From: Zymoseptoria tritici IPO323
Lineage: Eukaryota; Ascomycota; Dothideomycetes; Mycosphaerellales; Mycosphaerellaceae
DNA: 64,000 nucleotides
NCBI RefSeq assembly: GCF_000219625.1
Contig: NC_018215.1
Coordinates: 1,550,001-1,614,000, forward strand
Direction: 5' to 3'
The position numbers and the translations under genes were made by a program. The number at the start of each line of letters is the position of its first letter. Position 1 is the stretch's first letter. Below are positions 1 to 54,000 of the stretch, in pieces. The notes under the pieces were generated by a model that had not been told where the DNA came from, ran no database searches, and saw only the letters and a list, made by a program, of their open reading frames with translations.

Positions 1-1447
1 ATACTTTTGCCGTTCCTCTTATAGTAGCCTTTATCTACTAGTTCTAGGCGTAAATCGATACGTTATATAGTATATTAACGACCTTAAAACCCGCTACGGT
101 TAGATTGTTTATAATATAAACGTTCGAGCTACTATCTAGAAGCTAGCGATTCTTTTCGTCGTACGCTTCGGTCGACATTACTCTAAATTGTATTATAGCT
201 CTAATAGCGTAACTACTATACTACGTTTTCGGTTCGTTAGAGACGATTGTTCTACTTAAACTAGGTGTTCCGGACCTAGTCTATTCCTTCGGTATCTTAG
301 TAATCTTATAGTAATCCTTTAGTTTTATAGTAATAGGGTCTCTAAACTTTATCTATTAGAGGTACTTAGCCCTATCCTACTTTAGGACATTCCGGTAGTA
401 GTCGAGGAACTTCTTATCGTCCTTTGTTATATTAGCTTTATCGGGTCGAAGACGATAGTTAACGATAGGGCAATCCCTAGGTTTTATATACGCTTAATTG
501 CTATCTTTTCCTATATATAGTCGACAGGTCCTATCTTTATTATTAGGTCTGTTTACTCTACTTTAATTACCTAAATTAGTCGTTACGTTAAACTTTATAT
601 AACCTGTTCCGGTAATTTAAGTCTCTTCCGACCTAAACGTAGCGTTTATACGGAACTACTTAGCTAAGTTGTATCTCTACAAAGTAAAGCTTGTAGAAAG
701 ATCCTAGGCGTTTTCCGTACCGCCCTAAACGTCCTGTCCGAAGTAGAGTTAAATCTCTTCCCCCCGGATCTACGCCTAGAGAGATAGTTAATTTTATACT
801 CTCTACGTATAGTAAAGCTACCCGAAAACTACCCCGTAAGACTCGCTATCTAAAGCGCGCCTTCGGATACGCGAGAAGTCCGATACGAGGACTCGAGAGA
901 GATACTTCCGTAAAAACGATAGAGAATATAGATATAACTACTCTATTATCGACTCCGATAATATAAGCATTTCGTAGAACACGAGAGGGCTAACTACGCA
1001 AAAGACGATCTCTTTAGCGTCTAGAAAACCCGATACGAAATAGTAAGACAACGGGAGATTAATAAGGTACCTAGGAATATAAATAGCTACCTTAGTCGAT
1101 TTCTATAGAGCTCGCTAGGAAAATATAGAATAGGAGGAAGACGCGCTTTAACTAGTGCCTTCTATACTATCCTATTAGGACACGGATACCTAAAGTCCTA
1201 TCTCTATCGCTTTAAACACGTAACGACGCTAGACTGCCCTTGCGGACGACGAGAAACAGCAGAACACCTCGTATGTAGCTGCCCTATCTACGATGTACTT
1301 AGGCTACTACCGCTACGACAAGCACAATCTCTACTAGAAATAGTAGAAGATAAGGAACTCCGGAAACACCTTACTACCTTTCTCTCGGATACAAAGATTG
1401 CTTCTAGGTCCTAGCACCTAGCAAGAGGCGAAGACGAGACCGTCTAG
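1..1447 (+). pseudogene. LINE ORF2 C-terminal part (RNase H side and CCHC tail), RIP-decayed
   Basis: Decayed frame for the C-terminal part of a LINE ORF2 polyprotein. The clearest stretch starts at about 1,235 and reads CPCG.RETAEHLVCSCPIY, the cysteine/histidine motif found near the C terminus of Tad1/I-type LINE proteins after the reverse transcriptase and RNase H region. Many in-frame TAG/TAA codons sit where Gln or Trp would be expected. The reverse transcriptase core lies to the left of the window and is visible in the two full copies. It cannot be functional as it stands. Confidence 0.75.
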
Positions 1448-1658
1448 CCTACACTCCTTTTACCTTTCCTTATTTGTCTTTCTTTAAAGTCCTTCGATAC
1501 TAGCTAGCTACTATCCTAGGCACGGGTCTTTCCCTAAGGTTAAGAGATACGAGAGAACAACGATTGTACATAGATAGACTGCTGTCGCGAGACAGCCGTC
1601 CTATATAGTCATAGACTCCTACAGGACGTAAATGGAACAAACAAACAAACAAACAAAC
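1..1658 (+). mobile_element. LINE copy A (3' part, runs off window)
   Basis: This is the 3' part of a non-LTR retrotransposon in plus orientation. It ends in a simple tail of ACAA units at about 1,636-1,658. The same sequence occurs in reverse complement at 36,391 onward and 50,809 onward, where the element is full length (about 5.58 kb), so only the last third is visible here. It lies directly against a minus-strand Gag-like frame, which it probably interrupts. Its target duplication cannot be checked because the 5' end is outside the window. Heavy CpA-to-TpA change marks it as a RIP-decayed copy. Confidence 0.9.
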
Positions 1659-18445: not shown

Positions 18446-18462
18446 TAATAGTATACCTCGAA

Positions 18463-18764
18463 TGTAATAATAAGTAGTAGGGATGTATAAACAAGCGTAC
18501 TACTCGGGTGTGCAATAGTATAAGGATACCGTACTATCTAGTATAAGAGTAATTCTTGCCCCTTCGATCCGCCTACGGCGGCTACCTATTTAACCCTCGA
18601 GAGATAGATACGAGTCGGTGCGGAATAGGTACGGTACGCCTACGACTCGCTACGCGACATCTAACTCGCACCTATATATATATACCGTAACGATACCGTA
18701 GGGACTTCGTAACGACCTTTAGGTCCCTACGGTCCGCCTACGCTTAGCCTTAGCGCCTTTCATA
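18463..18764 (-). repeat. 3' LTR of chromovirus II
   Basis: 302-bp LTR, tgtaataataagtag at its left edge and ctttcata at its right edge. It pairs with 26,623-26,924. Single-base differences between the two are mostly RIP-type transitions. Confidence 0.92.
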
Positions 18765-19414
18765 CACGCCTCCCCCTTATGCTAATATCCTTAGCAGCAG
18801 AGGTTATAGCTATCCGCATGCGCATCCTTACGCTCTATAGTTCTAACTCTTATAGTATTTATTTTTTATTCCTCTCGGATCCCTTACGATCCGCTACCGT
18901 TTACGTGCCTTTAGTTATCTCGGTTTTAGTCGTTGCGGAGCGTCTACGTAGTAACGGTCGCTAGGCGTAGCCCCGCGTTGTTATTCCGAATTTTTATTAA
19001 TACTCTAGTTAATCCTCGGCGGAACGCCCGCGAATTTATACCTTAAATATTTTCCTTACGAACGACTTTTTCTCGATAGGACATCGTCTTTCTATACCGC
19101 ATTCGTAACCGAACCGCAACCGATCTACAACTAATATTACTAACTAACATTATTACCCGTACGTAAGCGTGCCGTACGCCTCTATAGCTATAGGCTACTA
19201 GAAGGGCGCTATAGCGGACTTCGTATATCTAACGGATCTGCTAGAAGAAGCCGTCTATAAGTAGAGCGTAGACGATATAGCTCCGGACGCTCCTACTACC
19301 TAGATCGATTATTATAGGTGCGCAAAGTCTATTACGGTTAGTAGGGAATATAATAAGCCGCTAAACAAGGCTTATAAGTTTTACAACTCTAACAACTATA
19401 AAGGTTGCTATTAG

Positions 19415-19465
19415 GTACGTATGCGCTTCGCTATAATTTGTTAACTTTAGCTAACTATATTGTAG
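19415..19465 (+). other. Spliceosomal intron 1 of the antisense gene
   Basis: Donor GTACGT, branch-like GCTAACTAT 15-20 bp before the acceptor TTGTAG, length 51 bp. This is a typical size for ascomycete introns. It contains an in-frame TAA, and the frame is phase 0 on both sides. Confidence 0.7.
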
Positions 19466-19849
19466 GTGCTCGGCGGTATGTAGGGTAGAGTTAATAAGAT
19501 CTATTCCCTCTTTAATATCTACCGCGAGGAAATTAACCGTATCCGTCGCGAGATAGAGGAAGAGAACATCCCCCTAGATAACTTAGAGGAGTGTGTCCGC
19601 GAGGATAACGTAGCTTTTACAGCCGGCCTTAACCTGTCTCTAGCTACAAAGACGTATAACTCTAAGATCTAGTAGATAGAGGCGAATGCGTCTCGCTAGG
19701 GACACTAGTTGTTTAGCCTAACTTTAAAACCTCGCTCTAATATAGAGGCTACTCTCCTCGCTAACGAGGCTACTACGCGCCTTAATAGTATATACGCCTC
19801 GTAGGTAGCTAGCATGTTTTCTTCTAGCGCGTCGCGCGTATATTGTCCC

Positions 19850-19895
19850 GTAACTATACCGTAACGACCTTTTACTAACTTTTCGATTTCTTTAG
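19850..19895 (+). other. Spliceosomal intron 2 of the antisense gene
   Basis: Donor GTAACT, perfect TACTAAC branch sequence, polypyrimidine tract and acceptor TTTAG, length 46 bp. Removing it restores one continuous frame, because the length is one more than a multiple of three. Confidence 0.78.
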
Positions 19896-21409
19896 ACTCC
19901 CCGCTCTAACGGAGTAATCGAACTATATCTCGCTATACGCCCCTTTGCCTCTAACGAACAGGGTGCTATTACCTTTAGCTCCGGCCCTACCGATATACGT
20001 CTCCTATCTAACCGTAAGGCCCCTAGCACCCCTTCGACCCGCGTTAACGACCGTAGCGTATCTAGCGTAACCGCGGCTACTAGTAGCGACTCGGAGGATA
20101 AGGGCGATAGAGACTATAATAAGGACGCTAGCTTAAGTAAGGTTTCCGACACCGAGGAGTCGTCTAAGGACGAAGAAGAGGAAGACGTTATATACTCCCC
20201 TACGGTCCGCCGTAGTCGCCGTCGCGGCTCTTCTAATAACGGTAGGGCTTCTAGTAGCTACGTACTAAAGAGCAAGTCGCCTCGTAAGGGCGGTAGTACT
20301 CTCCGCCTCGCGAAGGAGAAGCGTACGAAAGTAGCGCGTAAGGCGGCTCGCTAGGAGTAGCGTGCCCGTTATAATAAGTAGCGCCGTACTATCCGCTCGG
20401 CTAATAAGCGTAACCGCTCTCGTAGTAGAGGTGTTTCTGTTCCTACTACGTAAGGTAGCCGCACCGGTGCCGCCGGCGACGACTTTATTCGTAACTACTC
20501 TATTAACCGCATTACCTTCGATAAGAACACCCTTCTAGGTAGCCCGAAGGGTACTCCTACTCGCGATAACCGTAGTCGCTAGCCTCTCGCTAAGATCGAT
20601 CCCGTAATAATAAGTAGCGCTCTTCCTAACTCGGTAACTAAGTAGGACCGTCTTCGCCGCTAGATCGCCGACAACTAAGCTAAAGCTCTACGCCTCGATT
20701 AATAGCTTACGGAGCGCACCTAAGAGGACCTCGATCGTAAGGCTAGAATATTTAATAGTACCGCCGGTGGCCGTCCCGCTACTCTATTTAACGCTAGCTC
20801 GGCTAATCTACCTCTAAACCTTACTACGCCTACGGCTCGCACTAACTCTACATTAACTCCCTAATCTGCTCGTCTTACCCTCCTTCGCGAGCGCTAGCGT
20901 ATCCGCGAGGAGCAAGTCTAAGAGGCTCGCTAGCGTAAGATTAAGCGTACCGCTATAATCTAGCGCGAGCGCGACTAGCGCTAAGTACGAGAGGAGCAGG
21001 CCTATATAGCGGAGGAGGAGTCCCGCGAGATTACCTATACTACTATCGCTAATGTAGTTCTTCGTATTAAGGCTAACCGCAACGCCCCCGCAGGCACTCC
21101 GCTAAGTAGCAACTATATCCTCGGAGGTCTTTAGACTCCTAGGACTCGTAGCGACCCGACGGCGGTAAACCCTAACCTACTACCTTGCTCCGTTCGAGAG
21201 GAGGTGTACCTTTAGTTCCCTACTAATCCTAACTACCGTAATTAAATTATATAGGCTTGTCTAGCGGATTACCTAGAGGATCTAGTGCGTAAGAACGACG
21301 CTCTATAAAGAGTAGATCTCCGCACCGACTCCGCACCTATCTCGCAACGACTTATTATCGTAACTACAACTCGTAGTTACTACTATAATAACTTCTCTTC
21401 TTTAATATA

Positions 21410-24400
21410 GCGCATTTTCCGGGCGCGGGTAATTAGTTAGATTAGAGTCTCGAATGCGATACGTATAGGACGATACCGATTCGGTAGTTCGACAATACTA
21501 ATATATTTAATCGTAATCTATGTTTTCCTAGTCTTTCGCCGTAACTTCGTAGTAACTTCCTATTCTTATAACAGCTCGTCTATATATTTAAAGTTATCGG
21601 CGGTTTGCTATATATTACAAGTCTTATTATAGTCTTTCTATCTTAATCGATACTACACCTCGCCGCCGCGAGTCCGCTAGTCTACGATTCTTTTAACCTC
21701 GTATATCTCGTTGCTATCCGTAGTAACGTCCGGTAGCTTAACATTCTTTAGCTCGAAGCTAGGTCTAATATAGTACGGTTGTAGCAGTAAGATATAGAAG
21801 ACGTTATAGATCTACTATAACGAAGGCAGCACTAGGCGGTACGCCTACGCCTTCTCTCTAATTACATCGTCTACTCGGAAAGGTCCTACGAATCTAGGTA
21901 ATAGCTTCCGGCTTAGCTTCTTTAACTTTAGATTTTTCGCACTTAGTAATACTAAGTCGCCCCTACGGAACGTATAGTTACGATGCTTCTTATCGTACGC
22001 TCTTTGCTAGTACTTCTAAGAGTTCTTAAGCTTCTTCGCAGCCGATTCGCGTACGCTTTATATCTCCTTAAACCGCTCGATTGCTACCGGCGCCTCCCTT
22101 TTATAATAAACGGCCTCGTTTATATCGTTCTATCGCGGATTCTCTCTATATACTAGGAAAAAAGGTGTTTTCCTAGTACTTAAATAGTCCGAGTTGTTAT
22201 AAGCGAATTTAGCGTATAGTAACAACTTAGCCTAGTTATTCTGTTTCTTATTATAGAATGCTCTTAGGAATCCTTCTAGCGTCTAGTTCTAACGCTTAGT
22301 TTAACTATCCGTTTACGGATAGTACGCGGTACTTAGTCTTCTTCTTATCTAGTATTAAAAACATAGCTCTATCTAAAATATAGATGTAAAGAGTATACTA
22401 CGGTCGGATATAATACCTTTAGGGAAACTAAACTTAGACGCTACTCGATCTATAAATACTTTAGCGAAGTCTAAAGCTTTCTAAGTTTCTTTTCCTAGAA
22501 TATATAATACTATCTTTAATCGTCTGTCTACGATTATAAGTATAGAATCGAATATATTATCGTTACGCTTCGACGGCGGCAACTTTACAATAAAATCTAG
22601 GGTAATTTCTTCCTAATTCTTTCCTAGAATTAGTAGGCTAGACAATTTGCCTAAGGGTAACAATCTCGGAGCCTTTATTCGTTAGTAGACATTATATATC
22701 TTTACGAAGTGCTTAACATCCGCGTCTAGTTCGGGCTAGTATAAGGACCTCGTAATAAGCTTAATAGTCTTGTTAGGGCCGAAATGTCCTATAAGCTTAG
22801 AGTCGTAGTAAACCGCTATAACTTCGTTTCTTACGGCCGGTTTATTCGGTATATATAACTTACCGTACCTACGGAGCAAGTTATCGTCTCCTAAGCTCTA
22901 TACTTAACTCCCGCGCTTCTTTCGACTCTCTATCTATACCTCTTCGCTAGATCTCTATCGCTTAATAAAGTCGTCGCGATCCTATAGCGAAGATACTAGC
23001 TCGAGGAAAGGTTTTAAATCTTCCGAAGATGCGGTTACGCTAGTAAGTAGGACTTTTGCTATATAGCGTAGCACGATCTATATACATTTAGAAGTGCTAG
23101 CGACGGGGGATTTTATAAAGACTACGTCGCTTTAGTCCGGGAGGTCGTTGCGATCTCCCTACGGTATATTACCGTAATCGGGTCCCTAATCCTTTTTAGT
23201 TACGATTCTAGCGAACGTAACCCTTACGCTCTAACTTACTAACTTTAGCTTGTTCTATAGAGTTAGAAGTAGTTCGTTTATAGCCGAATTTTTAGTCTAG
23301 TAATCCGGTCTGCGAGATAGTCTATCTACTAGGTTCGATTTCCCTACTTAATAGAAAATCTCGAAGTCGAATAAGCCTAGGTATAGTACGTACCGCGCTT
23401 GCCTCGTATTTAACTTCTAGATAGTCTAAATGCCTTTTAGATTGTTATAGTCCGTATAAACCTAGACCGGGTTTTCCGAACTACTAAAATAGTGCCTCTA
23501 TACCTTAAAGTAGTGTACTATTGCTAACAACTCCTAATCGTACGTCTAGTAGTTGCGCTCCGTAGGCTATATCTTTCGAGACGTAAACGCAACGGGGTGC
23601 TATTTACTATCTAGATGCAGCTGCGATATAATACCTAAGATACTAAAGTTAGAGGCATCCGTTTCTAGCTTAATCTTTAGTTTCGGATCGAAGTGCCTAA
23701 GAACGATATCGCTAGTAAACACCTCCTTTAGCCTTCTAAAAGCCGCGTTAGCTTCGCTACCCTATACGAACTCCTTATCTTTCTAGAGCAGGTCGGTAAT
23801 CGGGCTACTAATCTTTACAAATCCTAATATAAAGCGTCGGTAGAAGTTTACAAAACCTAGGAAGACCTAAACGTCGTAGACGCTATTCGGTTACGGCTAT
23901 TCCTAGATCGTTGCGATCTTTTTAGGGTCGGTAGTTATACCTTTAGTCGTAATACGGAACCCTAAATACGAAACCTCCTATACCGCGAAGGTACACTTCT
24001 TAAGGTTAACGTACAATTCTACGATACGCAAGCGGTCTAGGACCTTACGGACCGTAGCCTAATAGTCTTCGATGTCCTTACTATAGGTATAAATTAATAT
24101 GTCGTCGAGGTATACTATATAAAGGTTATCGAGAAGGCCCGCTAGGGTACGGTTAATATAGGCCTAGAATGTAGCCGGAGCATTAGTTAAGCTAAAGGGC
24201 ATAACCTTATACTTATAATAGCTATACCGCGTACGGAACGTAGTCTTCTATTTATCGCCCTTACGAATGCGGATACGATAATAGGCTTCCTTAAGATCGA
24301 GGGTAGTAAAGAACTTCGCACCTATTAGGCGATCTAAGGTTTTATTAATTAAAGGTAGAGGGCATCTGTCTTTAACGGTAATAGAGTTAAGTGCTCGGTA

Positions 24401-25320
24401 GTCGACGTATAAACGTAGCTCGCCGCCCTTCTTTAGAACAAAGATAACTAGTGTACCCGTAGGGCTAATACTATATTATATACGACCCGAGGCTAACTCC
24501 TTCTCTAGGTAATCCTAAAGGATACCTAACTCTTTCTCCGAGAGATTATATAGGGAGCTATATAGTAGTTCCCGGCCCTCGACTAGGTTAATAGTATAGT
24601 CGGTAGCTCGATGCGTTAGTAACGTAGAAGCGGAGTTAGAGTTAAATACGTCGGTATAGTCTAAGAGAGCCGTAGGGATTTTAACTACCTTTACTTCAGC
24701 TAAGCCGATAGTGTATACGAGGCGTATAGATCCCGTAGGCGTTACTATAATCTACCCGACGACGATAAGCGGAGTCTTATCGTTCCTTAACTCCTTCTTT
24801 AATCTTTTATACGAGATCCTACTAATAGTTTCGGTCCCTAGACTCTATCGCTAGGTTCCCGTACCGACCTAGATATTAATTCCTTTCGTCGTTATAGTAT
24901 ATTGTCTAAAGAGGATCTCTAGTCTATCCTTGTCTACCCTATACATAAGTATAGTATGTTCTTTAATAATACTATTGTCGTCTATTATCCGAATAGGAAC
25001 ATTATACGCGCTATAACAGGTTATGCTTTAATCTTAAAGCTAAACTAGAGATAGGAGTTCGGCCTCGACCGTTGCGAGGTCGTAGCGAACTATAAACTTC
25101 TAGTCGATTAGGGTAATTTGCGACCCTATATTAAACGTAGCGGAGACTATGCGATGTCCCTACGACAATATAATATCGAACTATCGAGTAATAACCTGTC
25201 TAGCTTCGATAGGCCGTACTAATTTCGGCTTCGTTATACTTTATACGGTTGCGACGAAGCCTATCCTTTTCCTAAACTAATTAGAGCTCGGTTTAGATTT
25301 CTACCTCCCTATCCTTTCTA
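21410..25320 (-). pseudogene. pol: Chromovirus II pol (protease, RT, RNase H, integrase, chromodomain), RIP-decayed
   Basis: Read right to left after gag. The catalytic reverse transcriptase box is YLDDILIY, with the YLDD codons at 24,101-24,112, so the active-site Asp residues survive in this copy. RNase H and integrase follow toward 21,900. The C-terminal chromodomain (EIYEVKRIVD.RTRGGEV.YRLR.KDY) lies at about 21,560-21,720. Gln and Trp codons are replaced by TAA/TAG, so it cannot be translated as it stands. The chromodomain would direct integration to heterochromatin marked by H3K9 methylation, a known property of chromoviruses. Confidence 0.85.
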
Positions 25321-26577
25321 GGGACAGGTAGTTAAGACATAACTAGCCTTTCCGCATGTCTAGCAGCTAATAGTAGAGGATAAATCGGTAGGGCGCGAAG
25401 GGAGATTAGAGCCTCCTCTAAAGCCTCTACGATTTCCTCTACTACGATTATTACCGTTGCCTCTCTAGCCTCCTCTACGGTAATTCCTATTAGAGTTTCG
25501 GCCCTAGCTGTTACTTCTTAGCTTACGACTACAAGGCGCTAGCGTCTTAGAAGGTTCTAGAGGTCTCTAACTAGTGCTCGTAGAGGGAGCTTTTGTATCC
25601 TTAATGTTCTTCTCTATGCGAGACGCGAGGTCTATAAGCTCTATACGAGTAGTTAGTATTATATTGTAATCTATAATCTTAATGCGAATATCCTTACGAA
25701 GTCGCATATAAAACATATATAACAACTATTCCTCCGAAGGCAATAGTAGAAGCTAAGCTTCGATGCTTTCTAAGTATATAAGGAACGAGCGCGCGGACTA
25801 ATCCTTGCCTTATACCGCGACGCGATGCTTCTTAAAGGACTCGAGCTTATGAGCGTCCGGATCGTCTAGTAGGTTGTTAAGGAATTCTATAAATCCTACC
25901 TAAGTTACTACGGTACGTAGGTTAGGGTTATTAGCCTACTAGCTATACTAGCGTTCTCTCGGATTATAAGAGTAAGCTAGGTATTATATAGACTATATAA
26001 CCTTCTAAGAATTACTACGGAACGACTACGGTGCATTAGTAAATATAAGCTCGTATTCGAAGCGCTAGTTACGTAGCTCCTTTACGCTCTTACCCTTAAG
26101 GTCGAAAGGCTTCTTAATATTAATCTTAGCTCTTCTAACTCCGGCAAACTCTTTATCGGACCGCACCCTTTTATATCCGGTTACGCGACCGTAGGCGATA
26201 TCGTCCGCTAGGTTCTTATTAAGTTCCTTTATCTTTCTAAGCTTTTTCCGAAGGAAAGCTTTAGTAAGAGCCTCTTCCGCGGCGACGGTAGCCTAGAGAT
26301 CGACTATTTTGTCGATTTCGGTATTGTCGTCTTCGTTTCCCTCGGCGGGATCCGCCGGCGGAGTAGTTGCGTACTCTTCCGTAGAGAGTATCGAGGTAAT
26401 ATTGTTACCTTCCTCTTAGTCGGCAATAAGGTTATCTTAGTCGTTATTAACGACTTCCTTAATACGACCCGCATCGGTAGTAGCTTCGGTAGCGATGCCC
26501 TATTTATCGGGCATAGCGCTACTTATAAGTAGCTCGTCTCTTCCTATAGCGACCCTAGTAGTTCGCTTAGGTAGCAT
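25320..26577 (-). pseudogene. gag: Chromovirus II gag, RIP-decayed
   Basis: The frame starts at an intact ATG at 26,577 (MLPKRTTRVAIGRDELL), continues through a capsid-like region, then an Arg/Gly/Asn-rich basic section (about 25,400-25,500), and ends with a zinc knuckle at 25,324-25,375. There the pattern C-x2-C-x4-H-x4-C is kept except that His is now Tyr (CAT/CAC to TAT/TAC, a RIP change). Several TAG/TAA codons interrupt it. Length, about 420 codons to the knuckle, is normal for a fungal Gypsy Gag. Confidence 0.85.
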
Positions 26578-26622
26578 CCTCGGACTATTACCCTTATAGT
26601 AAAGGTTAAGGAAGAATTACTA

Positions 26623-26924
26623 TATAATAATAAGTAGTAGGGATATATAAATAAGCGTACTACTCGGGTATATAATAGTATAAGGATACCGTACTATCTA
26701 GTGCAAGAGTAATTCTTGCCCCTTCGATCCGCCTACGGCGGCTACCTATTTAACCCTTAAGAGATAGATACGAGTCGGTGCGGAATAGGTACGGTACGCC
26801 TACGACTCGCTACGCGACATCTAACTCGCACCCGTATATGTACACCGCAACGATACTATAGGGACTTCGTAACGACCTTTAGGTCCCTACGGTCCGCCTA
26901 CGCTTAGCCTTAGCGCCTTTTACA
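26623..26924 (-). repeat. 5' LTR of chromovirus II
   Basis: 302-bp LTR paired with 18,463-18,764. Its inner edge is followed (in the element's direction) by tagtaattcttcc, a candidate primer-binding site with TGG changed to TAG. It is followed outside by the tcgaa duplication at 26,925-26,929. Confidence 0.92.
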
Positions 26925-36390: not shown

Positions 36391-36599
36391 GTTTGTTTGT
36401 TTGTTTGTTTGTTCCATTTACGTCCTATAGGAGTCTATAACTATGTAGGACGGCTGTCTCGCGACAGCAGTCTATCTATGTACAATCGTTGTTCTCTTGT
36501 ATCTCTTAACCTTAGGGAAAGACCTGTGCCTAGGATAGTAGCAAGCTAGTATCGAAGGACTTTAAAGAAAGACAAATAAGGAAAAGTAAAAAGAGTATA

Positions 36600-39500
36600 G
36601 GCTAGACAGTCTCGTCTTCGCCTCTTACTAGGTGCTAGGACCTAGAAGCAATCTTTGTATCCGAGAGAAAGGTAGTAAGGTATTTCCGGAGTTCCTTATC
36701 TTCTACTATTTCTAATAGAGATTGTGCTTATCGCAGCGGTAGTAGCCTAAATACATCGTAGATAGGGCAGCTACATACGAGGTGTTCTGCTATTTCTCGT
36801 CGTCCGCAAGGGCAGTCTAGCGTCGTTACGTGTTTAAAGCGATAGAGATAGGACTTTAGGTATCCGTATCCTAATAGGATAGTATAGAAGGCACTAGTTA
36901 AAGCGCGTCTTCCTCCTATTCTATGTTTTCCTAGCGAGCTCTATAGAAATCGACTAAGGTAGCTATTTGTATTCCTAGGTACCTTATTAATCTCCCGTTG
37001 TCTTACTATTTCGTATTAGGTTTTCTAAACGCTAAAGAGATCGTCTTTTGCGTAGTTAGCCCTCTCGTGTTCTACGAAATGCTTATATTGTCGGAGTCGA
37101 TAATAGAGTAGTTATATCTATATTCTCTATCGTTTTTGCGGAAGTATCTCTCTTAAGTCCTTATATTAGACTTCTCGCGTATCCGAAGGCGCGCTTTAGA
37201 TAGCGAGTCTTATAGGGTAGTTTTCGGGTAGCTTTGCTATACGTAGAGAGTATAAAATTAACTATCTCTCTAAGCGTAGATCCGGGGGGAAGAGATTTGA
37301 CTCTACTTCGGACAGGACGTTTAGGGCGGTACGGAAAACGCCTAGGATCTTTCTATAAGCTTTACTTTATAAAGATACTAGAGGTTTTATACTCTTTTTC
37401 GACTGCTACTAAACTAAAACCCCGTAGTCTACTATTATAGTAACGTAGGCTAGGTAGATCTTTCTTAACGATATAGAAGATAGACTACGTTCGGTATTTG
37501 CTAGTCTTTCTAATTAATAGAATGCCGCTTGTGCTTATGCCGATCTTATTATAATATGCTCCTTAAAGGTAAGACCGGCGTCTAGCTAAATCCTAAGCTA
37601 CCTTATCGCTTTCTTTGCCGGGCGAATAATATCGCTATTTAGAAGAATTACCGGGCAATCGGACCTTTTCCCTTTTAAGAAGTGTACTAGGTCTATCTTT
37701 GCTAGGTCGAAAGCAATCGAGTTCTTCTTTCCTAGGTCTATTAGCCTTCTTACCTTACGTTCTAGTACCTTAGAGTTCTTCTTAAGGGACGTAGACGAGG
37801 TAGATAGTCTAATATCGTCGACATAGGAACTAGGAGTAACTCCTTATAGCAAGAAGAATATGTCGCGCGTATAGATAAGAAAGAGGATAGGAGATATCGG
37901 GCTACCTTACGGAACGCCGATCTCTACGTCCTAGAATTCCTATATCTGTCCGTCGAATACTATTCGTAAGCGTCTATTGCTTATAAACAACTAAACCTAA
38001 TGTATAAGGCTATATAGAAGCCTTAACTAGATTATTATTCTTAATAGTCGGTTCTTTGTAATATAGTCGTATGCTCCTTTTATATCGAGGAAGATAACTA
38101 AAGTCTTCTTTTTCTTTCTTCGATTCTCCTCGATTTCGTTTGTTAAGAGAAGTACTATATCGATAGCCGATTTCTTTTTTCGCCCTCCTAACTGCAAGTT
38201 ATATAGAAGGGGCTTCGTCTCTACGATAATCCTTAGGCGTTTTGCGAGTATTCTCTCGCTAATCTTACTAAGATAGTTTAGGAGAGAGATAACTCGGTAG
38301 GCCTTAGGGACCGAATAGTCTAGTTTTCCCGGCTTTGCTAGAACTACGCCTGTCGCAACTTTCTAGCATTGGGGGTAGTGTCCTTTGTCGAGTAGCCTAC
38401 TGTATATACGTAGAAAGGTAATAGGAATAGCGCCGTACGCTTTACTAATAATAGCTTATGTAATACCGTCTAGGCCCGGCGTTTTTCCTTTTACTATCTT
38501 CGTACTATAGGCGGTAGTAAGTTCCTCTTCGGTTAGCGTAGTCCAGCCCTAATCCCTAGCTATATACGCTTCCTAATAGCTAGGTAGAGGTTCCTCGGTA
38601 GGAGGGCGCGGAAATAAGGCTTCGGAGAAGGCCTTACATTTCCCCTCGAAAGAATCTTCGTTGTTTATCGTAAGTATCTGTCTTCGGCTGCTATTCCTAG
38701 TATAGGATATAGCTTTAAAGATAGATTTCGAGTCTTCTTTTTCGAGGAAAGCGTTCTAGTAGTTCTTCTTAGCTGTTTTAATAGCTTAGAAGTACTCGTT
38801 TCTCGCTTTCGTATACGCCTCTTTCTCGTCTAGCGTCGGCGTACGTCTATAGGTAAAGGTCTGTCTATATGTTCTAGATATTATACGGCGTAGTATACGT
38901 AGCTCTCTATTCTACTAAGGTTTTGCGTAGGCGTATACTACTTTCTCTAGGATTGCTCCCCGCATCGATTTAGTAATATACGAGGTAAAGGAGTCTACGA
39001 TGTCGTTAAGGGAGTTCGTATAGTTAATAGACGTTACCTTACTTATTAGGAGATCTGTAAACAGTTCCTAATCCGCGGAAGCTATATCTAGAACTACTTT
39101 CTTCTATTAGGCTCGATCTTGCGCGCTAATAAGGTCTATAGATATAGCGTTATAGTCTAAGCCTATCGGAATTGTTCTCTAGTCGATTTCTTTCGTAGAT
39201 AAGGATCCTCTTATAAACGTAAGGTCTAGGACCGACTCTACGTCTAGGTGCGGCCTATAGAAGGTCCCGACACCTATCGTATTATATAGAGTAAAGCCCT
39301 AGTCTTCTATCTACTCTATAAATTCGCGGGCACTAGTAGTATCCTTTCCCTTTAGATCCTAGGACGGGTATCTAAGGTTAAAGTCTCCTACTAGTAGAGT
39401 ATTTAGAAGGAACGTGTTACGTAGAGGGTAGAGGCTTCTCTCTATTATTCGTCGGTTTTGCGGGTTCTTAGTATCCCGAAGGTCCTTCTCGTTATAGAGA

Positions 39501-50808: not shown

Positions 50809-51019
50809 GTTTGTTGTTTGTTTGTTTGTTTGTTTGTTCCATTTACGTCCTATAGGAGTCTATAACTATGTAGGACGGCTGTCTCGCGATAGCAGTCTAT
50901 CTATGTACAATCGTTGTTCTCTTGTATCTCTTAACCTTAGGGAAAGACCCGTGCCTAGGATAGTAGTAAGCTAGTATCGAAGGACTTTAAAGAAAGACAA
51001 ATAAGGAAAAGTAAAAGGA

Positions 51020-54000
51020 GTGTAGGCTAGACGGTCTCGTCTTCGCCTCTTGCTAGGTGCTAGGACCTAGAAGCAATCTTTATATCCGAGAGAAAGGTAG
51101 TAAGGTGTTTCCGGAGTTCCTTATCTTCTACTATTTCTAGTAGAGATTGTGCTTATCGTAGCGGTAGTAGCCTAAATACATCGTAGATAGAGTAGCTACA
51201 TACGAGGTGTTCTGCTGTTTCTCGTCGTCCGCAAGGGTAGTCTAGCGTCGTTACGTGTCTAAAGCGATAGAGATAGGACTTTAGGTATCCGTGTCCTAAT
51301 AGGATAGTATAGAAGGCACTAGTTAAAGCGCGTCTTCCTCCTATTCTATATTTTCCTAGCGAGCTCTATAGAAATCGACTAAGGTAGCTATTTATATTCC
51401 TAGGTACCTTATTAATCTCCCGTTGTCTTACTATTTCGTATCGGGTTTTCTAGACGCTAAAGAGATCGTCTTTTGCGTAGTTAGCCCTCTCGTATTCTAC
51501 GAAATGCTTGTATTGTCGGAGTCGATAATAGAGTAGTTGTATCTATATTCTCTATCGTTTTTACGGAAGTATCTCTCTCGAGTCCTCGTATCGGACTTCT
51601 CGCGTATCCGAAGGCGCGCTTTAGATAGCGAGTCTTACGGGGTAGTTTTCGGGTAGCTTTACTATACGTAGAGAGTATAAAATTAACTATCTCTCTAGGC
51701 GTAGATCCGGGGGGAAGAGATTTAACTCTACTTCGGATAGGACGTTTAGGGCGGTACGGAAAACGCCTAGGATCTTTCTATAAGCTTTACTTTATAGAGA
51801 TACTAGAGGTTTTATGCTCTTTTTCGACTGCTACTAAACCGGGGCCCCGTAGTCTACTATTATAGTAATGTAGGCTAGGTAGATCTTTCTTAACGATATA
51901 GAAGATAGACCGCGTTTAGTATTTACTAGTCTTTCTAATTAATAGAATGCTGCTTATGCTTATGCCGATCTTATTATAATATACTCCTTAAAAGTAAGAC
52001 CGGCGTCTAGCTAAATCCTAAGCTACCTTATCGCTTTCTTTACTAGGCGAATAATATTGCTATTTAGAAGAATTACTAGGCAATCGGACCCTTTCCCTTT
52101 CGAGAAGTGTACTAGGTCTGTCTTTGCTAGGTCGAAAGTAATTAAGTTCTTCTTTCCTAGGTCTATTAGCCTTCTTACCTTACGTTCTAGTACCTTAGAG
52201 TTCTTCTTAAGGGACGTAGACGAGGTAGATAGTCTAATATCGTCGACGTAGGAACTAGGAGTAACTCCTTATAGCGAGAAGAATATGTCGCGCGTATAAA
52301 TAAAAAAGAGGATAGGAGATATCGGGCTACCTTACGAAACGCCGATCTCTACATCCTAGAATTCCTATATCTATCCGTCGAATACTATTCATAGGCGTCT
52401 ATTACTTATAAACAACTAAACCTAATATATAAGGCTATACAGAAGCCTTAACTAGATTATTATTCTTAATAGTCGGTTCTTTATAACGTAGTCGTATGCT
52501 CCTCTTACGTCGAGGAAGATAACCGAAGTCTTCTTTTTCTTTCTTCGATTCTCCTCGATTTCATTTATTAAGAGAAGTACCGTATCGATAGCCGATTTCT
52601 TCTTTCGCCCTCCTAACTACGAGTTATATAGAAGGGGCTTCGTCTCTACGATAATCCCTAGGCGTTTTGCGAGTATTCTCTCGCTAATCTTACTAAGATA
52701 GTTTAGGAGAGAGATAACTTAGTAGGCCTTAAGGACCGAATAGTCTAGTTTTCCCGACTTTGCTAGAACTACGCCTGTCGCAACTTTCTAGTATCGGGGG
52801 TAGTGTCCTTCGTCGAGTAGCCTACTATATATACGTAGAAAGGTAATAGGAATAGCGCTGTACGCTTTACTAATAATAGCTTACGTAATACCGTCTAGGC
52901 CCGGCGTTTTTCCTTTTACTATCTTCGTACTATAGGCGGTAGTAAGTTCCTCTTCGGTTAGCGTAGTCTAGCCCTAATCCCTAGCTATATACGCTTCCTA
53001 ATAGCTAGGTAGAGGTTCCTCGGTAGGAGGGCGCGGAAATAAGGCTTCGGAGAAGGCCTTACATTTCCCCTCGAAAGAATCTTCGTTATTTATTATAGGT
53101 ATCTATCTTCGGCTGCTATTCCTAGTATAGGATATAGCTTTAAAGATAGATTTCGAGTCTTCTTTTTTGAGGAAAGCGTTCTAGTAGTTCTTCTTAGCTG
53201 TTTTAATAGCTTAGAAGTACTCGTTTCTCACTTTCGTATACGCCTCTTTCTCGTCTAGCGTCGGCGTACGTCTATAGGTAAAGGTCTGTCTATATGTTCT
53301 AGACATTGTACGGCGTAGTGTACGTAGCTTTCTATTCTACTAAGGTTTTGCGTAGGCGTATACTACTTTCTCTAGGATTGCTCCCCGCATCGATTTGGTA
53401 ATATACGAGGTAAAGGAGTCTACAATGTCGTTAAGGGAGTTCGTATAGTTAATAGACGTTACCTTGCTTATTAGGAGATCTGTAAACAGTTCCTAATCCG
53501 CGGAAGCTATATCTAGAACTACTTTCTTCTATTAGGCTCGATCTTGCGCGCTAATAAGGTCTATAGATATAGCCTTATAGTCTAAGCCTATCGGAATTGT
53601 TCTCTAGTCGATTTCTTTCGTAGATAAGGATCCTCTTATAAACGTAAGGTCTAGGACCGACTCTGCGTCTAGGTGCGGCCTATAGAAGGTCCCGACACCT
53701 ATTGTATTATATAGAGTAAAGCCCTAGTCTTCTATCTACTTTATAAATTCGCGGGCACTAGTAGTATCCTTTCCCTTTAGATCCTAGGACGGGTATCTAA
53801 GGTTAAAGTCTCCTACTAGTAGAGTGTTTAGAAGGAACGTGTTACGTAGAGGGTAGAGGCTTCTCTCTATTATTCGTCGGTTTTGCGGGTTCTTAGTATC
53901 CCGAAGGTCCTTCTCGTTATAGAGATTAACTATCTAGATCTTATTGCCCTTTTTGTCTAAAATAACAAAGGAAAGTATGTCGCTATCGTCTAATAAAATA

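What the first reader, a model, noticed from the sequence alone, without database searches (positions are those of the whole stretch)
19150..21400. Antisense, intron-containing gene carried by chromovirus II
A gene on the strand opposite to gag-pol has two introns with full donor, branch and acceptor signals, and the 46-bp intron must be spliced for the frame to continue. Sense introns would be lost in each replication cycle through genomic RNA; antisense ones are kept. The arrangement therefore suggests a functional gene that has travelled with the element (or been captured from the host) with its own promoter, perhaps in 18,780-19,150. Antisense accessory genes are known in a few plant Gypsy lineages; I know of no described fungal case with introns.
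Basis: partly seen in the sequence, partly recalled or inferred. Interest (0 to 1): 0.88.

Follow-up and report, generated by a model that had tools for sequence, protein, structure and literature searches.

The report
Spliced antisense gene in fungal retrotransposon
A jumping element in a wheat-infecting fungus carries a protein gene on its opposite strand whose introns survive copying through RNA, and the gene seems to have been kept working by selection until the fungus's repeat-mutating defence broke the copies seen here; antisense genes of this kind are known in a few elements, one of them fungal.

Summary
Window 18463-26924 is a Ty3/gypsy LTR element with gag-pol on the minus strand, in a genome consistent with Zymoseptoria tritici. 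Between pol and the 3' LTR lies a plus-strand gene of three exons: about 19190-19414, 19466-19837, 19896-21440. All 13 LTR-paired copies found carry it; 10 of 13 have exact 5-bp target duplications. Intron 1 is right. Every copy is broken by RIP-type stops (33 in 707 codons here). Earlier the protein was under purifying selection: 13 of 15 transversions shared by at least two rows fall on antisense third codon positions (p = 3e-5), against 17 of 40 singletons. An un-RIPped fragment on contig C6 keeps intron 2, and a database protein matches it with exactly that intron removed. The N-terminus has six clustered cysteines; no family matches over its cut-off. Host capture is not supported. Antisense genes at this position are known (fungal brtn), so this is an intron-bearing variant of a known kind. 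Transcription and function are untested.

The parts
18463..26924 (-). Ty3/gypsy LTR retrotransposon copy (gag-pol read on the minus strand), RIP-inactivated
   Evidence: LTR pair, RT/RNase H/integrase zinc-binding domains, TG...CA-type ends and 5-bp TSD TCGAA on both sides, RIP indices
18463..18764 (-). 3' LTR of the element (about 302 nt)
   Evidence: 17 transitions and 0 transversions against the other LTR
26623..26924 (-). 5' LTR of the element
21437..26600 (-). gag-pol region; the pol frame ends at TAA 21439-21437 (tentative)
   Evidence: start of gag not determined
18765..19189 (+). stretch upstream of the antisense gene; putative promoter/5' UTR (inferred only)
   Evidence: 13 transversion-variable sites in 389 columns of 18761-19149, 11 shared by at least two rows; in-frame TAA at 19145 in 12 of 13 rows
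19190..19414 (+). exon 1 of the antisense gene (start codon probable)
   Evidence: 0 transversion sites at codon positions 1 and 2 in exons 1-2
19310..19408 (+). six-cysteine cluster C-X2-C-X9-C-X7-C-X2-C-X7-C (Cys codons at 19310, 19319, 19349, 19373, 19382, 19406)
   Evidence: in 13 rows these six are only Cys or Tyr (TG->TA, RIP type)
19415..19465 (+). intron 1, 51 nt, GTACGT...CTAAC...TAG
   Evidence: GT and AG in 13 of 13 rows
19466..19837 (+). exon 2
19838..19895 (+). intron 2, 58 nt, GTATAT (GTATGT in most copies and in the un-RIPped relative)...CTAAC...TAG
   Evidence: GT 12 of 13, AG 13 of 13 rows; same intron in the C6 relative and spliced out in P0001
19896..21440 (+). exon 3, fast-evolving tail, by eye rich in Arg/Ser/Lys/Glu; TAG 21438-21440 in 13 of 13 rows, overlapping the pol stop by 2 nt

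Best explanation
This is an accessory protein gene of a Z. tritici Ty3/gypsy retrotransposon family, encoded antisense between pol and the 3' LTR, with two spliceosomal introns. Shown: it is part of the transposed unit, its splice signals are kept in the copies, its codon-position pattern of older changes is that of a constrained protein, and every copy found here is now broken by RIP-type mutation. Inferred: it was transcribed from a promoter in or near the 3' LTR or 18765-19189 and spliced. The sense genomic RNA carries the introns in reverse complement, so the spliceosome does not see them and they pass through reverse transcription. The product, a six-cysteine (probably zinc-binding) N-terminus plus a basic low-complexity tail, most likely worked in the nucleus as a regulator or cofactor of the element (transcription, silencing escape, or integration).
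For: All 13 LTR-paired copies found hold the segment at the same place, 11 uninterrupted and 2 split; TSDs are exact in 10 of 13 (9 by script, C14a read by eye from the same output), one mismatch in 2, unmatched in 1. Splice sites are conserved. Selection: 13 of 15 shared transversions at antisense codon position 3, against 17 of 40 singletons (Fisher p = 0.005); window versus C3 copy 7 of 7 transversions at position 3; exons 1-2 have 0, 0 and 3 transversion sites at positions 1, 2 and 3. Frame: the one exonic indel among copies is 6 nt, the two 1-nt indels lie in the introns; the four internal indels against the un-RIPped relative are 21, 3, 3 and 3 nt (a 9-nt gap at the ragged edge not counted). 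Of 43 codons with a stop in any row, 33 are sense in another row, 25 of these most often CAG or CAA, and there is no TGA; CCA/TGG is 0.3 per kb in the window copy against 37.8 in host DNA. P0001, a database protein, matches the C6 fragment with exactly intron 2 removed.
Against: No transcript evidence was available. Ten of 43 stop codons are stops in every row, so RIP is inferred there; in 8 of the other 33 the usual sense codon is not CAG or CAA (AAG 2, CTA 2, CGG, AAA, TTA, CGA 1 each). CCA/TGG is not gone from all copies (0.0 to 14.9 per kb in the other rows). Two TAGs are shared with the un-RIPped C6 fragment and one with the weak C11 match. Single pairs are weak: window versus C9 copy has 3 of 8 transversions at position 3, and pol in window versus C3 copy, a control, 5 of 11. 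Third-position excess in fixed transversions against the C6 relative is not significant (13 of 27, p = 0.08). No homologue outside Z. tritici and no Pfam family over its cut-off was found. Chromodomain not called by Pfam. The function is inference from composition.
Confidence: 0.8

Rival explanations
1. Host gene captured recently by the element; the C6 locus is the remains of the donor.
For: The C6 locus is un-RIPped, in DNA of normal dinucleotide make-up, keeps intron 2 and matches an annotated protein.
Against: C6 matches only mid exon 2 to mid exon 3, with flanks that do not match the element and two in-frame TAGs upstream of the annotated start; no full-length host homologue. This fits a fragment of the element gene landing in host DNA.
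Confidence: 0.1
2. Antisense transcript with regulatory (dsRNA or long non-coding RNA) function only; the open frame is incidental.
For: Antisense transcripts as regulators are discussed in PMC7264820 (passages); PMC10648671 reports long non-coding RNAs from transposon-derived antisense sequences in Blumeria (title and start of abstract in the listing).
Against: Codon-position bias of shared transversions, frame-keeping indels and clustered cysteines point to selection on protein.
Confidence: 0.06
3. A nested insertion or chance open frames in one copy, with introns imagined in RIP-mutated sequence.
Against: All 13 copies found carry the segment; intron 2 is in an un-RIPped relative and removed in P0001.
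Confidence: 0.03

Closest known systems
brtn antisense gene of Boty-like Gypsy retrotransposons, Botrytis cinerea (Zhao et al. 2011 Virology 417:248; not held, known here only through passages of citing papers PMC8365987, PMC7264820, PMC4227169)
   Same: Fungal Gypsy element; additional gene antisense to gag-pol between pol and 3' LTR
   Different: Sequence relation and introns of brtn could not be tested; Boty gag-pol is described as having a CHROMO domain, which Pfam did not call here
Plant aORF-3R genes (maize Grande gene23, rice RIRE2, Silene Retand, PvRetro13; review PMC7264820, passages seen)
   Same: Antisense gene between pol and 3' LTR, present in most copies, conserved, product proposed nuclear, own upstream promoter reported for Grande
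   Different: No sequence match found to any known family; the word intron does not occur in the main text of that review, while introns are conserved here
Retroviral antisense transcription units such as HTLV (as mentioned in PMC7264820)
   Same: Retroelement with antisense transcription; the review places the HTLV antisense promoter inside the 3' LTR
   Different: Cellular retrotransposon, gene placed after pol, no homology shown, promoter unknown

Membership tests
Ty3/gypsy LTR retrotransposon | Paired LTRs with TG...CA-type ends and short target duplication | tested here: met
Ty3/gypsy LTR retrotransposon | RT and RNase H upstream of integrase in pol | tested here: met
   RVT_1, RT_RNaseH, Integrase_H2C2, SH3_Tf2-1 in that order; integrase core not called
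Chromovirus | Chromodomain at integrase C-terminus | tested here: inconclusive
   No Pfam chromodomain at E <= 1; a chromodomain-like end is visible by eye only
[quoted passage not shown]
   13 of 13 LTR-paired copies found
Antisense additional ORF (aORF-3R) class | Transcribed from its own promoter | not testable with these tools
   no RNA data
BRTN family | Sequence homology to BRTN | not tested
   BRTN sequence not available; protein searches gave only P0001
DUF3716 (PF12511) | Profile match | tested here: not met
   16 genome matches, none at the element copies (best candidates only); hhalign probability 0.0 and 0.2 percent
Fungal Zn2Cys6 domain | Profile match | tested here: not met
   No such Pfam match in the copies tried at E <= 10 (filters drop most weak matches); the only weak match confined to the cysteines is Zn_ribbon_19, E 0.11, 13.1 bits against a cut-off of 30.8. 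Spacing resemblance is recalled

The most novel reading that the evidence does not exclude
A retrotransposon that is coded on both strands: its antisense strand holds a spliced, selected gene for a Cys-cluster nuclear regulator of the element itself, analogous to the antisense accessory proteins of some retroviruses, with antisense orientation the device that lets an RNA-copied element keep spliceosomal introns.
Probability: 0.35. Interest if true: 0.7.

Novelty: new variant of a known kind. Interest (0 to 1): 0.48.

Why it matters
LTR elements lose sense introns when copied through spliced RNA. A gene that keeps introns by lying antisense, in many independent insertions and with a signature of protein-level selection, shows that retroelements can carry spliced genes. 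It gives a case in which the function of antisense accessory genes, described as unknown in the review PMC7264820, could be tested in a fungus with many sequenced genomes.

Tried and rejected
Rejected: intron 2 donor at 19850, GC in 8 of 13 rows and in the relative. Rejected: host homologue at C6:1942459 (36%, E 0.03); L049 has no tblastx or blastn match to the element. C11:376247 (43% over 47 aa, E 0.0095) is kept only as a possible relic. Rejected: DUF3716 membership. Led nowhere: Pfam on window exons (where the gag-pol piece was also given in a wrong frame; repeated), N-terminal protein searches, solved structures. Papers: ten searches; among the titles and abstract beginnings listed (searches listed only 25 of 131, 20 of 62 and 20 of 27) I saw none on an antisense gene in a Z. 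tritici element. PMC4522978, PMC8759822 and PMC3248453 have 0 occurrences of 'antisense' in their main text, of which I saw passages only. PMC5987419 (passage) reports a Monilinia transcript similar to BRTN.

Full report
Setting. The window is C4:1550001-1614000 of a 39,686,251-base, 21-contig genome. The only database protein found related to the gene comes from Zymoseptoria tritici, and the size fits the reference isolate IPO323 (recalled). Most of the first 58 kb is RIP-mutated, except about 45-50 kb: TA/AT is about 1.7 to 3.3 and (CA+TG)/(AC+GT) about 0.1 to 0.4, against 0.3 to 0.7 and about 1.2 to 1.4 from 59 kb on.

Element. LTRs at 18463-18764 and 26623-26924 (94% identical, 17 transitions and 0 transversions) bound an element with RT, RNase H, integrase zinc-binding and Tf2-like SH3 domains on the minus strand. 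TSD TCGAA lies on both sides. Twenty-seven LTR matches in the genome make 13 pairs, as I paired them by position, and one solo LTR on C20. Ten of 13 pairs have exact 5-bp TSDs (9 scored by the script, C14a by eye from its output), 2 have one mismatch and 1 (C9) does not match.

The gene is in every copy found. The DNA of 19130-21420 gave 17 matches: 11 that span the segment (L028-L038, L029 to position 2261 of 2291), two copies split in two parts (L039+L042, L040+L041), one fragment L043 at 76%, and one short piece (L044, the far end of the C9 copy). Thus all 13 LTR-paired copies carry it and none lacks it. Counts are lower bounds by the tool's own statement.

Introns. In 13 aligned rows each, intron 1 has GT and AG in 13 of 13. 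Intron 2 has GT at 19838 in 12 of 13 and AG in 13 of 13; both have a CTAAC or CTGAC branch-like word in all rows. So intron 2 is 58 nt. Since the copies are separate insertions by their TSDs, the introns passed through retrotransposition; this follows directly if they lie antisense to the genomic RNA.

Coding and selection. In a RIP-mutated sequence transitions are uninformative, so I used transversions only. Among 14 aligned rows (L040 and L041 left out as partly misaligned; L029 counts as two rows, and L039 and L042 are parts of one copy), 55 of 2120 exonic columns vary by transversion: 16, 9 and 30 at codon positions 1, 2 and 3. Where the rarer class is in at least two rows, 13 of 15 sites are third positions (p = 3e-5). 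Singletons are 15, 8 and 17, not biased (p = 0.14), as expected for changes after the copies died; the contrast has Fisher p = 0.005. Exons 1-2 have 0, 0 and 3. Single pairs have little power: window against the C3 copy gives 7 of 7 at position 3, against the C9 copy 3 of 8, and the pol control against the C3 copy 5 of 11 (2, 4 and 5), so pol shows no bias in that pair. Against the un-RIPped relative, fixed transversions are 5, 9 and 13, suggestive only (p = 0.08), while its internal indels are 21, 3, 3 and 3 nt.

Death by RIP. The window copy has 33 stops (24 TAG, 9 TAA, no TGA) in 707 codons; the ten other copies whose segment is complete or nearly so have 21 to 34, and the parts of the two split copies have stops too. 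Of 43 codons that are a stop in any of the 14 rows, 33 are sense in another row: most often CAG or CAA in 25, another codon in 8. Ten are stops in all rows. CCA/TGG words are 0.3 per kb in the window copy, 0.0 to 14.9 in the other rows and 37.8 in host DNA, so fixed TAGs at former TGG sites are plausible, not proved.

The un-RIPped relative. C6:646690-647664 (minus) lies in DNA with normal dinucleotides. It matches from mid exon 2 (about 19664) to mid exon 3 (20668), keeps intron 2 as GTATGT...CTGAC...CAG, and has two in-frame TAGs in exon 2 at places where the window copy has TAG as well. Protein P0001 (322 aa, Z. tritici ST99CH_3D1) matches its translation, begins in this exon 2 and continues across exactly this intron. 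It is an annotation; whether RNA reads support it is not known to me.

Protein. Eight codons of 707 are Cys, or Cys/Tyr without Arg, among rows; six of them lie within 33 residues with spacing C-X2-C-X9-C-X7-C-X2-C-X7-C (one further codon, the first of the stretch examined, is Cys, Tyr or Arg and not counted). This resembles fungal Cys6 zinc clusters in spacing only (recalled): no Pfam family over its cut-off (weak Zn_ribbon_19, E 0.11, over the cysteines in copy L036), and DUF3716 tested and not met. Exon 3 is by eye rich in Arg, Ser, Lys and Glu. No homologue other than P0001 appeared in about 5.8 billion proteins; only the candidates sharing most words were scored, so remote ones may be missed.

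Ends. The pol frame's last stop (TAA, 21439-21437 minus) and the antisense TAG (21438-21440) overlap by two bases, the TAG in 13 of 13 rows. Both lie in words that RIP could make, so this neat junction is tentative.

What is known. [quoted passage not shown] PMC8365987 and PMC4227169 cite the same work (passages). So an antisense gene in a fungal Gypsy element is known. What I did not find in the ten searches named in Tried and rejected is one with demonstrated conserved introns, but the lists were partly cut and the primary brtn paper is not held, so I do not claim it is absent there.

On rereading the calls I added the pol control, the C9 pair, the non-CAG/CAA stop codons and the range of CCA/TGG counts, and replaced 'gene-rich' for the C6 locus by what one search shows.

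Noticed in passing
L045 4191-5165 (C6:646690-647664, minus): A 1-kb unmutated fragment of the element's antisense gene sits in host DNA of normal dinucleotide make-up and matches a protein annotated in another isolate (P0001): possible co-option or a spurious gene call.
   Followed up: partly
L053-L055 (C8:2200924, C2:1983830, C5:174832) and C13:943093: A repeated family with in-frame stops encodes DUF3716; in L053 it lies beside a weak, below cut-off DUF6589 match; perhaps another transposon with a Cys-rich protein.
   Followed up: partly
window 18462-21900 and copies L029-L042: RIP context: CCA and TCA words (both strands) are almost gone in the window copy and strongly reduced in the others, while GCA and ACA are partly spared.
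   Followed up: partly
window 21437-21440: Stops of pol (minus) and of the antisense gene (plus) overlap by two bases, tail to tail.
   Followed up: partly
L048 1948-2088 (C11:376247-376387, minus): Weak un-RIPped match (43% over 47 aa, one TAG inside) to the Cys-cluster exon, perhaps an old relic.
   Followed up: partly
window 671-1658, 36391-37378, 50816-51803: Another repeat of about 1 kb occurs three times in the window, one copy inverted to the other two (96-98% alike).
   Followed up: no
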